NCBI RefSeq assembly: GCF_003387155.1 | Contig: NZ_QUMT01000001.1 | Span: 248,001 to 312,000 of the forward strand | Direction of reading: 5' to 3' | Length of the DNA stretch: 64,000 nucleotides | From: Roseateles depolymerans | GTDB taxonomy: Bacteria > Pseudomonadota > Gammaproteobacteria > Burkholderiales > Burkholderiaceae_C | Shown here: positions 37,670 through 42,078 of the stretch, piece by piece | Layout of the letters: every line of letters starts with the position of its first letter | Position numbering within the stretch: position 1 is the first letter of the stretch | The notes under the pieces: model-generated | The model's database searches: none | What the model saw: the letters and a program-made list of their open reading frames with translations, nothing else | What the model was told of the DNA's origin: nothing | Translations under genes and position numbers: made by a program

Positions 37670-38884
37670 ATGCGGCTCATGTACATCTGGCAGCGGCCTG
37701 ACTGGCCGAGTTTTCGCTTTGACAGCACCGCGGCGCTTCCCGAACTGGCTGAGGCACATCGGGCGCTGGGCGAACTGGAAGGCCAAGCCCATGCCATCGG
37801 CATGGATGCTGCCAACCAGGTGACGCTGGATGCTTTCTCCAAGGAAGTGGTGGCCACTGCCGCCATTGAAGGGGAAGCGCTGGCCGCCGAGGTCGTCCGG
37901 TCCTCCGTCATGCGGCGCCTGGGGCTCTCGGACGAAGGCGTGGCCGACCGGCATGTGGACGGCCTGGTGGACATCGTCAACGACGCGGTGACCGCCCTCG
38001 ACCAGCCCCTGGATGAAGATCGTCTTTGCCGCTGGCAATCGGCCTTGTTCCCGGGAGGCACGTCCGGCATCGTGCGCATTGCCGTGGGGCGCTATCGCGA
38101 CCATGAGGACCCGATGCAGATCGTCAGTGGCCAGCCCGGTCGGGAGGTCGTGCACTATCAGGCCCCGCCGTCCCACGCCGTGCGGGCGGAAATGGAACGT
38201 TTCCTGGCCTGGTTCGCCGACACGACGCCGTCCAGGCTGCTTACGTCTGATCGGGTGGCCACGCCGCTGGATGGACTGGCCCGTGCCGCCATCGCGCATC
38301 TCTGGTTTGAAAGCATCCATCCGTTCGAGGACGGCAATGGCCGGCTGGGCCGTGCAGTGATGGATCTGGCGCTGGCCCAGCACCAGGGCGGCTCCGTGCG
38401 GCTCTACAGCCTGTCGGGGCAGTTGCTCGCGTCCCGCAAGGCGTATTACGACCAGCTCAACCAGGCCCAGCGCGGCGATCTGGATGTGACGGCCTGGATC
38501 CGGTGGCTGGTGCAGCAGTTCGCGGCGGCCTGTCGGCACGCCACCGGCGTCATCCGAAGCGCCCTGGTCAAGCGCGCCTTCTGGGACCAGCATGCCCACC
38601 AGATGACGCAGGAGCGGCAGCGCAAGGTCGTCCAGCGTCTTCTGGACGACGGCGATGGCGGCTTCCAGGGCGGGCTCAATGCCGACAAATACATGAAGAT
38701 GACAGGCACCTCCAAGGCGACCGCCACCCGGGACCTGATGGCGCTGGTGGCGGCGGGCGTGCTCCGGTCGTCGGGTGCAGGGCGCGCCGTTCGCTACTAC
38801 GTGAACGTGCCGGGCTGGACGCACGGCATCGATCAGTCCTCCACCGCGCCGCCCGCCGACAGCTCGGCCCAGTCCAGTTCCTGA
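37670..38884 (+). CDS. Fic-domain protein (AMPylator-type) with DUF4172-like N-terminus and wHTH C-terminus
   Basis: A 404-residue Fic protein. The N-terminal segment resembles DUF4172 (YIWQRPDWPSF). The inhibitory helix motif is T63-x3-E67-G68, and the core motif HPFEDGNGRLGR spans 217-228 with catalytic H217. This predicts self-inhibited AMP transfer from ATP to a protein hydroxyl. The C-terminal about 60 residues (GTSKATATRDLMALVAAGVL) are a winged HTH, suggesting the protein also binds DNA. Upstream are three palindromes phased at 33 bp. Start codons at 37670 and 37679 are both possible. It overlaps the convergent antiporter gene by 52 bp. Confidence 0.9.
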   Translation: MRLMYIWQRPDWPSFRFDSTAALPELAEAHRALGELEGQAHAIGMDAANQVTLDAFSKEVVATAAIEGEALAAEVVRSSVMRRLGLSDEGVADRHVDGLVDIVNDAVTALDQPLDEDRLCRWQSALFPGGTSGIVRIAVGRYRDHEDPMQIVSGQPGREVVHYQAPPSHAVRAEMERFLAWFADTTPSRLLTSDRVATPLDGLARAAIAHLWFESIHPFEDGNGRLGRAVMDLALAQHQGGSVRLYSLSGQLLASRKAYYDQLNQAQRGDLDVTAWIRWLVQQFAAACRHATGVIRSALVKRAFWDQHAHQMTQERQRKVVQRLLDDGDGGFQGGLNADKYMKMTGTSKATATRDLMALVAAGVLRSSGAGRAVRYYVNVPGWTHGIDQSSTAPPADSSAQSSS

Positions 38885-40395: not shown

Positions 40396-40486
40396 GAGCG
40401 CCGTTCGGAGCGGCCCGTGCGGGCCGCGTGCGCCTCTTGGGCAAGAGGGGTGCCGCCCCGTCATGAAGCAACGCCATAATCCGCCC

Positions 40487-40640
40487 GACTCCTGTTCGCC
40501 AAGCCTGTCGGAGGCTCTGGCTTCCGGGCCGCGGGGCATCCCCGTGGCATCGCATTGAGTGACGCATTCCGGCGCGAGATCCGCCTTGCGCTTCGCGCAA
40601 CACAGAACTCGCAGGACCGGCTCGTTGGCAGACGGGAGTC
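40487..40640 (+). ncRNA. Candidate retron msr-msd region upstream of the reverse transcriptase
   Basis: A 10-bp pairing (with two G-T wobbles) between 40487-40496 and 40631-40640 closes a segment with three nested hairpins: 40498-40521, 40528-40548 (9-bp stem, CAT loop), and 40569-40620 (CCGG/CCGG and GCGAG/CTCGC stems around a TTGCGC/GCGCAA tip). Retron RNAs have this layout: a1/a2 repeats enclosing short msr hairpins and a longer msd hairpin, upstream of the RT. The G at 40498 just after a1 could be the branching base. High GC makes chance stems likely, so this is a hypothesis. Confidence 0.4.
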
Positions 40641-40701
40641 ACCTTTTTGGCGCGGCGGCAGTCCGAACCGGCCCGTCCCTGTTGACTTGCCCTCGACCGT
40701 C

Positions 40702-42078
40702 ATGACTTCCTCGGCGTCCCTGACCTATCCCCGCTGGATTGCGCTGGCGCTGGCCCGCGCCTTCCAGACGGACGACGACGCGCCGGGCGGTCGCAGCCCC
40801 CAGGCGCTGCTGGGCCGGGGCATGGCCTGCGTCGGTGAGGAGCACCGGCGTTGGCTGCTGCCGCTGTGCCAGCACCTGGCGAGCTTGAGCGCACCCGTCT
40901 GGCTCGGCATGACGCCGCGCACCCTGGCCGAGCATCTGGATCAGCGTCCTGAATTCTTCGACGCTTGGGATCCCGCGGGTCCGCGCCTGCAGGTGCGTCG
41001 GCTGTTGCTGCGCCCGGCCCGCATGACGCCGCCGCCCTTTGCGCTGGAAGATCTGCCCCTGCCTGCCTGGCACACCGTGGCGGACCTGGCGGCCGGATTG
41101 GGGATCGACCTGTCGATGCTGGACGTGCTGGCCGGACCCGCACAGCGCTATCGGGAGGCGGAGGCACGGCCTCATCGTCCCCATGTGCAGGCCATTCGCC
41201 ACTACCGCGCCGTGCTGGTGCCCAAGCGGCGGGGCGGCCTTCGTTTGATCGAGGCGCCGATGCCCGCGCTCAAGGCGGTGCAGCGACGTTTGCTGCGCAG
41301 CCTGCTGGACCTGGTGCCGGTGCATGAAGCCGCCCATGGGTTCGTCGCGGGACGCAATGTGGCCAGCCACGCCGGGCTGCATGCCGGGCAGGACTGGGTG
41401 TTCCGCTTTGACCTGCAGGACTTCTTTCCCGGCATCGGTGCGGCCCGCATCCGGGCCCTGTTCCGCACGCTCGGCATGGAGGAAGCGGTGGCCGAATACC
41501 TCACCACGCTCTGCACCGTTCGCACGCCGCGAGCGGTCCGGGAGCGTCTGCAGGATGACGGCGGCTTGACGTGGATCGACACCCGCCGGCTCGCCGCTCC
41601 CCACCTGCCGCAGGGCGCCCCCACCTCGCCCCAGCTCGCCAACCTCTGTGCCTTCCGGCTGGACCTTCGCCTGGACGGCCTGGCGGCGCGATTTGGCGCG
41701 CAGTACTCCCGCTATGCCGACGATCTGGTCTTCTCCGGCGCCGGCACACCGGCGCTGGATGCGGTCACCCTGCATGCCTGGGTGAAGGCCATCGTGGAAG
41801 AGGAGGGCTTTCGGCTGCGCCCGGACAAGACCCGCTTGATGCGCGCCGGCGGCCGGCAGACGGTGACAGGCCTGGTCGTGAACGAGACCCCGCACATCGC
41901 GCGCGCCGACTACGATCGCCTGCGCGCCGAGATGCATCGCCTCGGCCGCGAGCCCGCCGTGGACCTGTCGCTGCGGGCGCCCCTGCTGGGCCGGCTGGCC
42001 TGGGCGCGTCAGTTCGTGGCGCCTACCCGCGCAGCCAAGCTGCAGCGCCTCTTCGATGCCATTTCCTTCGTTCAGTAG
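40702..42078 (+). CDS. Retron-type reverse transcriptase with N-terminal extension
   Basis: A 458-residue RT. The palm carries FRFDLQDFF (D237), LPQGAPTSPQLAN (302-314) and the catalytic YADD (338-341). VTG at 388-390 matches the retron-specific VTG motif, and HAGLH at 223-227 sits where retrons carry NAxxH, here with His for Asn. An N-terminal extension of about 165 residues precedes the fingers, as in the long RTs of myxobacterial Mx162-type retrons. A structured segment lies 61 bp upstream. No intron maturase, integrase or Cas domain is seen. A group of non-retron unknown RTs is the alternative. The ATG is used rather than an upstream TTG. Confidence 0.88.
   Translation: MTSSASLTYPRWIALALARAFQTDDDAPGGRSPQALLGRGMACVGEEHRRWLLPLCQHLASLSAPVWLGMTPRTLAEHLDQRPEFFDAWDPAGPRLQVRRLLLRPARMTPPPFALEDLPLPAWHTVADLAAGLGIDLSMLDVLAGPAQRYREAEARPHRPHVQAIRHYRAVLVPKRRGGLRLIEAPMPALKAVQRRLLRSLLDLVPVHEAAHGFVAGRNVASHAGLHAGQDWVFRFDLQDFFPGIGAARIRALFRTLGMEEAVAEYLTTLCTVRTPRAVRERLQDDGGLTWIDTRRLAAPHLPQGAPTSPQLANLCAFRLDLRLDGLAARFGAQYSRYADDLVFSGAGTPALDAVTLHAWVKAIVEEEGFRLRPDKTRLMRAGGRQTVTGLVVNETPHIARADYDRLRAEMHRLGREPAVDLSLRAPLLGRLAWARQFVAPTRAAKLQRLFDAISFVQ

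What the first reader, a model, noticed from the sequence alone, without database searches (positions are those of the whole stretch)
40487..42078. Possible undescribed retron: long RT with a structured upstream RNA candidate
The RT has FRFDLQDFF, LPQGAPTSP, YADD and the VTG motif, with HAGLH in place of NAxxH, and an N-terminal extension of about 165 residues. Just upstream, a 10-bp end pairing (40487-40496 with 40631-40640) encloses three hairpins, the layout of a1/msr/msd/a2. No integrase, maturase or Cas gene is close, and the next gene is a GST, so any effector may be the N-terminal extension or absent, as in Mx162-type loci.
Basis: partly seen in the sequence, partly recalled or inferred. 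Interest (0 to 1): 0.85.

Follow-up and report, generated by a model that had tools for sequence, protein, structure and literature searches.

The report
Unassigned retron type without effector
A stretch of a bacterial chromosome carries a reverse transcriptase and, just before it, a folded RNA with the layout of a retron (a bacterial element that makes small single-stranded DNAs), and the same RNA-enzyme pair recurs in widely separated bacteria, which marks a family of retrons that has no assigned type and no visible partner gene.

Summary
A 458-aa RT (40702-42078) follows a 163-nt structured RNA (40481-40643) placed directly behind a -10 box. The RNA has the retron layout: a1/a2 closing stem, a G in AAGC as likely primer, two msr hairpins (one with a 9-bp stem and 3-nt loop) and one msd hairpin. 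Covariance models found it at 103 of 104 homologous RT loci; all 88 placed by script lie on the RT's strand, upstream, with massive covariation. Searches with the RNA model and with PADLOC's RT_other profile picked the same 4 of 398 Pseudomonadota genomes; in 195 Myxococcota genomes the RNA marks the 20 strongest of 28 RT matches.

The RT is a retron RT but not type XIII (Mx65, Mx162): it forms its own clade, matches PADLOC's unassigned RT_other/RT_outgroup profiles best, and the RNA models miss Mx65 and Mx162. The genome that holds Mx65 carries a member as a third RT. No neighbouring gene is widely conserved, so an effector is absent, in trans, or the fast-evolving 118-aa N-terminal part. DNA synthesis is untested, structure prediction never ran, and the main classification paper was not held, so 'undescribed' is unproven.

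The parts
40475..40480 (+). -10 promoter box CATAAT, directly before the conserved RNA block; it puts the transcript start at about the first base of a1 (inferred)
   Evidence: Sequence; CATAAT at this place in the 13 close homologues, while further upstream diverges. No clear -35 in the window itself; TTGAC occurs within 45 nt upstream in 34 of 88 homologous loci against 4 of 88 for stretches taken 200 nt further up.
40481..40643 (+). Retron-type non-coding RNA (msr-msd), 163 nt, as modelled
   Evidence: Covariance models R1/R2, found at 103 of 104 family loci; covariation; no Rfam match at gathering thresholds.
40487..40502 (+). a1 arm (GACTCCTGTTCGCCAA)
   Evidence: Pairs with a2; helices 1 and 2 are 95.3% and 98.8% paired over 89 sequences, all 15 pairs with double changes.
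40503..40503 (+). Putative priming guanosine (G of CAAGC), at the inner end of a1
   Evidence: G in 81 of 89 aligned RNAs, 4 gaps, 4 other letters. Assignment by analogy with the AGC rule (PMC6868368 section 6).
40509..40526 (+). msr hairpin SL1 (stem 40509-40515/40520-40526, 4-nt loop)
   Evidence: Helices 4 and 5: 90.8% and 96.5% paired, all 8 pairs with double changes.
40528..40548 (+). msr hairpin SL2 (9-bp stem, 3-nt loop, GGGG-NNN-CCCC top), candidate RT-recognition hairpin
   Evidence: Helix 6: 98.5% paired, 7 of 9 pairs with double changes, top GGGG/CCCC nearly invariant.
40549..40624 (+). Predicted msd template region (76 nt between SL2 and a2), with the msd hairpin at about 40569-40620; predicted msDNA about 56-76 nt
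   Evidence: Helices 7-10 (the lower part, helices 7 and 8, is paired in only 70-71% of cells); spacing SL2-to-a2 is 71-82 nt in all 89 RNAs. Ends of the DNA are inferred, not shown.
40625..40640 (+). a2 arm (TTGGCAGACGGGAGTC)
   Evidence: Pairs with a1.
40702..42078 (+). Retron-family reverse transcriptase, 458 aa
   Evidence: Pfam RVT_1; PADLOC RT_other 390 bits, RT_outgroup 376, RT_XIII 306; tree; both Asp of YxDD invariant in 63 of 63 aligned sequences, the window's included; dN/dS 0.17-0.25 in three pairs.
40702..41055 (+). N-terminal extension, residues 1-118, no known domain, fast evolving
   Evidence: No Pfam match above cut-off and no PDB sequence relative below E 0.2; mean identity to the window's copy 29% against 49% for the rest; dN/dS 0.23-0.42 in three pairs.

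Best explanation
This is a retron of a type that is not assigned in the profile libraries I could search, belonging to a clade distinct from type XIII. Shown by sequence: a structured RNA behind a promoter-like box, with a1/a2, two msr hairpins and an msd hairpin, beside an intact retron-family RT; the RNA-RT pair stands at nearly every family locus examined. Inferred: the RT binds the RNA, probably through hairpin SL2, starts DNA synthesis at the 2'-OH of G40503, copies the msd region from about 40624 towards 40550-40570, and leaves a branched RNA-DNA molecule with about 56-76 nt of hairpin DNA. Inferred more weakly (about even odds): the RT-msDNA complex acts as a sensor or guard against phage, as in other retrons, with the N-terminal part or an unlinked protein as output.
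For: RNA layout and covariation. RNA at 103 of 104 family loci: 89, L234, 13 of 14 more (missing in L135). Same strand and upstream in 88 of 88 placed by script. RNA/RT co-occurrence: same 14 of 60 relatives, same 4 of 398 Pseudomonadota genomes, 20 of 195 Myxococcota genomes, the 20 strongest of 28 RT matches; 2 of those 4 and 5 of those 20 RNAs had gone into model R2. RT is retron-like by profiles and tree. Catalytic residues invariant and purifying selection. A hairpin with a stem of 8-9 bp and a 3-nt loop is what the RTs of Ec86 and Ec73 are reported to need (PMC6868368 section 6).
Against: No msDNA has been looked for. NAxxH has N in only 6 of 63 sequences and VTG has T in 38 of 63, although both motifs also vary among known retrons. 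No effector neighbour was found, which is unusual for defence retrons. The AGC primer context is not kept in the three alphaproteobacterial rows printed, and 8 of 89 RNAs lack a G at the aligned place. In the Myxococcota set, de novo folding did not recover a1/a2 as the outer stem. One family locus has no RNA match (L135). No match among phage records and only large Burkholderia replicons among plasmids; near the locus only a Fic protein and, weakly, a methyltransferase match PADLOC models besides the RT itself.
Confidence: 0.9

Rival explanations
1. It is simply a type XIII retron (Mx65/Mx162 kind), divergent in sequence.
For: RT_XIII is the third-best PADLOC profile (306 bits); shared extended N-terminus; Mx65 also lacks the Asn of NAxxH (PMC6868368 section 7).
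Against: Separate supported clades (family 96/83, XIII 92/90), though the order of branches among retrons is not resolved there. Mx65, the 485-aa Mx162-like RT and one long Roseateles RT (L047) score best with RT_XIII, six family members with RT_other. R1/R2 miss the six Mx65- and Mx162-like loci searched, L228-L233. N-terminal profiles show no similarity.
Confidence: 0.06
2. The RNA is not an msr-msd but the template or regulator of a non-retron RT, as in class 2 DRT systems, or a structured 5' leader of the RT mRNA.
For: DRT2 and other DRTs also pair an RT with a non-coding RNA (abstracts seen). The RNA precedes the RT on the same strand.
Against: RT groups with retrons, apart from the DRT2 and group II rows (Drt2 NCBIfam 33 bits against a 390 cut-off). 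The RNA shows the specific retron set: closing a1/a2 stem, G at its inner end, 9-bp/3-nt hairpin, one msd hairpin at nearly fixed spacing.
Confidence: 0.05
3. The retron works with the downstream glutathione S-transferase as effector or co-transcribed partner.
For: GST starts 9 bp after the RT stop in the window, and follows the RT in all 5 loci of this sub-group.
Against: The 8 other congeners with the RT have it elsewhere, with no match to this GST in the stretches of up to about 6 kb on each side, and in 7 of them the GST orthologue was found standing without the RT (none matched in G014). GSTs near the RT in two Undibacterium records and a Burkholderiales MAG are upstream and 48% identical. 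GST dN/dS 0.02-0.06, a housekeeping pattern.
Confidence: 0.03
4. A decayed or domesticated retron that no longer makes DNA.
For: One congener has only a remnant (L046); one order-level copy has an in-frame TGA (G042).
Against: RT dN/dS 0.17-0.25, both catalytic Asp invariant in 63 of 63, and compensatory changes keep the RNA fold.
Confidence: 0.05

Closest known systems
Type XIII retrons, Retron-Mxa2 (Mx65) and Retron-Mxa1 (Mx162)
   Same: Long RT with N-terminal extension and RNA upstream; about 42% identity over the RT core.
   Different: Other clade, other best PADLOC profile, N-terminus without detectable similarity, RNA not matched by R1/R2.
PADLOC RT_other (PDLC02949) and RT_outgroup (PDLC03740)
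   Same: Best matches, over nearly the whole RT in most members tested. My inference: these profiles were built from this family or close to it.
   Different: The library gives a protein profile with no type; the RNA, its structure and its linkage to the RT were worked out here. I could not see whether the original classification paper lists an RNA for it.
E. coli defence retrons (Ec86, Ec78, Ec67, solved structures)
   Same: RT similar in sequence (best PDB hit Ec86, E 1.3e-29); msr-msd anatomy.
   Different: No toxin or effector gene found beside the RT. Identity to my labelled references of the St85, I-C, II-A, III-A and XI kinds (copies from viral contigs and relatives' genomes, not the E. 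coli proteins) is 26-32%.
Retron-Sda1 and Retron-Bth1
   Same: Lone or atypical retron RTs outside the 13 types, reported in PMC12548924 (passages).
   Different: Sda1 has a III-A1-like RT with HipA/DUF3037; the Bth1 RT is interrupted by a group II intron. Not compared by sequence here.

Membership tests
Retron (general) | RT of the retron lineage | tested here: met
   Tree with retron types against one group II and one DRT2 RT, 96/98; PADLOC and NCBIfam profiles, though no NCBIfam retron model reaches its curated cut-off.
Retron (general) | Region X NAxxH and region Y VTG | tested here: inconclusive
   xAxxH: His in 63 of 63, Asn in 6 of 63; VTG Thr 38 of 63, Ala 22 of 63. Known retrons vary here too.
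Retron (general) | msr-msd RNA beside the RT, closed by complementary 5' and 3' ends (a1/a2, 8-30 nt) | tested here: met
   103 of 104 loci.
Retron (general) | Priming G at the inner end of a1, usually in AGC | tested here: met
   G in 81 of 89, AAGC in 57 of 89; context not kept in the three alphaproteobacterial rows printed. That this G primes is not shown.
Retron (general) | 1-3 msr hairpins (7-10 bp, 3-10 nt loops) and one long msd hairpin | tested here: met
   SL1, SL2 and msd helices.
Retron (general) | Branched 2'-5' linked msDNA | not testable with these tools
   Needs RT-DNA sequencing.
Retron (general) | Effector gene or fused effector domain | tested here: not met
   No neighbour family shared by more than 8 of 84 loci; N-terminal part has no known relative. 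A review notes retrons without clear effector association (PMC8867640, passage), so this marks defence types rather than retrons as such.
Retron type XIII | RT inside the Mx65/Mx162 clade and best match to RT_XIII | tested here: not met
Retron type XIII | Same msr-msd family as Mx65/Mx162 | tested here: not met
   R1 and R2 give no match in L228-L233; absence of a match is weaker than a match.
PADLOC RT_other / RT_outgroup | Best profile match | tested here: met
   RT_other 390-553 bits in 6 of 6 members tested, above every other profile listed.

The most novel reading that the evidence does not exclude
A whole retron type, spread over at least four bacterial phyla by record titles (Pseudomonadota, Myxococcota, Planctomycetota, Acidobacteriota; many of the records are metagenome bins) and carried as a third retron by Myxococcus xanthus, consists of one RNA and one protein only: its N-terminal part is a built-in effector or sensor that is held in check by a 56-76-nt msDNA, kept on the chromosome outside phages and small plasmids.
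Probability: 0.3. Interest if true: 0.8.

Novelty: new variant of a known kind. Interest (0 to 1): 0.62.

Why it matters
It gives a profile label without a type (RT_other/RT_outgroup) an RNA, a structure and a testable product, and a covariance model with which the family can be found. It adds a predicted third msDNA to M. xanthus, a species in which msDNA was studied early. An effector-less, chromosomal retron group would bear on the open question of whether all retrons are defence systems. Short msd hairpins from high-GC hosts could also be useful for making DNA donors in such hosts.

Tried and rejected
Rejected: membership of type XIII. Rejected: GST as a conserved partner. Rejected: an Rfam family for the RNA (no match at gathering thresholds in the whole window). 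Led nowhere: looking for an empty insertion site between the antiporter and GST genes in congeners; none of the 9 GST loci fetched had the antiporter within 6 kb. The first neighbour script used a crude gene finder that favoured antisense ORFs and found the RT in only 77 of 103 loci; it was replaced, which used 84 of 88 loci (4 dropped for short flanks; the window was not among the 88). The classification paper (doi 10.1093/nar/gkaa1149) is not held; what I say of the 13 types comes from passages of PMC12548924 and the PADLOC labels. Ten literature searches listed no paper that I could recognise from title and start of abstract as describing this RNA; that is not proof that none exists. A scan of viral contigs gave 52 RT relatives, the best 41% identical and over the RT core only; nine of them, taken as controls (L141, L142, L144, L146, L149, L151, L163, L164, L169), had no R2 match.

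Rows dropped before counts: L061-L064 and L090 (same places as L032, L034, L036, L042, L045), L046 (remnant) and L051-L056 (short fetches of the places of L241-L246) are not in the 104. L211 (RNA found by R2, family member by blastp) is also outside the 104; the other 36 non-family RT loci had no match. The 104 are the window, L031-L045, L065-L140 without L090, and L234-L246. L228 was taken as Mx65 because its contig number and coordinates (G490:C27:37959-39242) equal those printed for Mx65 in PMC8934634 Table 2 (passage) and give a 427-aa frame; the name M. xanthus DSM 16526 for G490 rests on that. L231 as Mx162 rests on its 485-aa frame, a length I recalled.

Full report
What was checked first. 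The RT ORF is 40702-42078 (+), 458 aa. It carries FRFDLQDFF, LPQGAPTSP, YADD, VTG and HAGLH as reported. The pairing 40487-40496 / 40631-40640 is real and closes the minimum-energy fold of 40487-40640, which is more stable than all 200 shuffles (z = -4.41; the longer stretch 40450-40702 gives z = -2.83). Rfam has no family for it at gathering thresholds.

The RNA in relatives. Of 15 congeneric genomes, 12 have a full-length RT homologue; with the window's own genome and one genome of another genus that makes 14 of 60 relatives at about 55% identity or more. Aligning the DNA upstream shows a block that starts directly after a CATAAT box and ends at GGGAGTCACC or its like, while the flanks differ in sequence and length. 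RNAalifold on the plain MAFFT alignment of 14 gives 39 pairs, 18 with changes on both sides; against shuffles, 95.4% of cells pair (mean 86.1%) and the covariation score is 0.327 (mean 0.139), reached by 0 of 500 shuffles. The pairs include a1/a2, the inner GCCAA/TTGGC, hairpin SL2 and the msd hairpin; SL1 was misaligned by one column there and appears in the smaller alignment.

Reach of the RNA. Model R1 was built from 7 Roseateles-group RNAs. Over 98 family loci it gave 89 matches at E 0.002 or better, with L234 found in another run. Model R2, built from those 89, then found 13 of the 14 family loci still without a match, L135 being the exception. That is 103 of 104 family loci. In the script that placed 88 of them (the window and the later 14 were not in it), 88 of 88 lie on the strand of the RT and upstream. 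The distance from RNA end to the first in-frame ATG, GTG or TTG is -37 to +33 nt in 83 and 56, 70, 136, 143 and 450 in the other five; this is a mechanical measure, and the true start is often later (58 nt after the RNA in the window). Read by eye, the coordinates of the other 14 are also upstream on the RT strand, with the largest gap, about 465 nt, in L130. On the 89-row alignment, which is fitted to the model and so leans towards it, 48 of 51 pairs have double changes, 92.7% of cells pair (shuffled 65.0%), the score is 0.614 (shuffled 0.153), and sliding the partners by 1-3 columns drops it below 0.09. As a check free of the model, I aligned raw upstream DNA of four lineages with MAFFT and folded each on its own: Burkholderia/Paraburkholderia (16), Planctomycetes/Acidobacteria (11) and Alphaproteobacteria (11) each gave an outer stem, two hairpins and an msd hairpin; the Myxococcota set (9) gave the hairpins but not the outer stem. 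Those four folds have no shuffle control.

RNA and RT go together. Among 60 relatives, R1 finds the RNA in exactly those 14 genomes, once each; two more distant RTs (G040, G042) have it when their loci are searched directly (L045, L044). Among 398 Pseudomonadota genomes, R2 and PADLOC's RT_other profile at E 1e-100 or better pick the same 4, with the RNA abutting the RT. Among 195 Myxococcota genomes, RT_other matches 28 and R2 matches 20, which are the 20 genomes with the strongest RT matches. Of the 8 weaker ones, one (G460) has the RNA on direct search and 7 do not (no match in L312, L314-L319, nor in L320, a second locus of G489). Scores of that size are close to what a type XIII RT gives with this profile (L047, 6.9e-104). 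R2 was trained on 2 of the 4 and 5 of the 20 RNAs, so the searches are independent only in part.

What kind of RT. PADLOC ranks RT_other 390 bits, RT_outgroup 376, RT_XIII 306 for the window; the NCBIfam retron models score 168-182 bits, below their cut-offs but far above the group II model's 48. Mx65 was identified as L228 from coordinates printed in PMC8934634 (passage) and an Mx162-like 485-aa RT as L231; both, and the long second RT of Roseateles (L047), score best with RT_XIII, whereas five other members of this family score best with RT_other. In a 52-row tree the family is one clade (96/83, 24 rows), type XIII another (92/90, 9 rows), and the retrons are split from the group II and DRT2 rows (96/98); branches inside the retrons are poorly resolved and several end branches are long. 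The genome that holds Mx65 and the Mx162-like RT carries a family member as a third RT (L236) with the RNA upstream (G490).

Anatomy and mechanism. Following the rules in PMC6868368 (sections 6 and 7 read whole), a1 is 40487-40502, the G of CAAGC at 40503 is the likely primer (G in 81 of 89), SL1 and SL2 are msr hairpins, the msd template lies between 40549 and 40624, and a2 is 40625-40640. SL2 has a 9-bp stem and a 3-nt loop, the kind of hairpin that the Ec86 and Ec73 RTs are reported to need. The distance from SL2 to a2 is 71-82 nt in all 89, so the DNA should be short, about 56-76 nt. All steps of synthesis are inferred.

Partner gene. Among 84 loci, no ORF family within 2.5 kb is shared by more than 8 loci; that one is GST-like, in the Roseateles sub-group and four other records, and the next are lineage-specific neighbourhoods. 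The GST after the RT is found in 5 of 5 loci of the window's sub-group but not in the 8 other congeners. The N-terminal 118 residues have no Pfam or PDB sequence relative, no profile similarity to type XIII N-termini, lower identity than the rest (29% against 49%) and dN/dS 0.23-0.42 against 0.13-0.20 in three pairs, so they evolve faster yet under constraint. That fits an effector, a sensor or simply a less constrained RNA-binding arm. There is no match at E 1e-40 in 50,697 phage records, only 3 Burkholderia replicons of 0.9-1.3 Mb among 72,556 plasmid records at E 1e-50, and 52 weaker relatives (41% or less) in viral contigs. Near the locus, one Fic protein matches PADLOC's SoFic (10 proteins scanned), and the methyltransferase after the GST matches mad2 at 1.5e-17, probably as a generic methyltransferase.

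Verdict. The finding is right in substance: a retron with all RNA parts in place and an RT of its own clade. It is a new variant of a known kind, since the RT clade already has unassigned profiles in PADLOC. How it acts is open; defence is my best guess for function at about even odds, retron biochemistry at 0.9.

Noticed in passing
L236:5932-7257 (G490:C5, with L228 and L231 in the same genome): The genome identified by coordinates as M. xanthus DSM 16526 carries, besides Mx65 and an Mx162-like RT, a third retron RT of this family with its RNA upstream.
   Followed up: partly
L046:5866-6137: A congener (G010) keeps only the 5' part of the RNA fused to short pieces of the RT: a deletion remnant of the locus.
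   Followed up: partly
L047, L048, L050: Several genomes of the genus and family hold a second, longer RT (638-700 aa as translated) that scores best with RT_XIII (tested for L047 only) and has, by eye, a hydrophobic, membrane-like C-terminal tail, possibly a fused effector.
   Followed up: no
window 37670-38884 (+): Fic-domain protein with DUF4172, matching PADLOC's SoFic model (E 2.5e-49), one gene away from the RNA-RT unit; a homologue lies at the same place in L031.
   Followed up: no
L044 / G042:C1:2685801-2687102: The RT homologue in this genome has one in-frame TGA although its RNA is found; decay, recoding or sequencing error not resolved.
   Followed up: no
L074, L075, L077, L078, L079, L082: Acidovorax members align with the window RT only from residue 99 or later; their N-terminal part looks different, so the extension may be exchangeable within the family.
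   Followed up: no
L034: In this locus (Roseateles sp. YR242) about 1.6 kb lies between the antiporter gene and the RT, where the other four loci of the sub-group have about 0.3 kb.
   Followed up: no
L067: A contig labelled Desulfobulbus MAG carries a copy 54% identical to the window RT, closer than expected for its label; possible transfer or binning error.
   Followed up: no
L130:5371-5542: RNA about 465 nt upstream of the start chosen for the RT, an unusually wide gap; a mis-chosen start or an insertion was not told apart.
   Followed up: no
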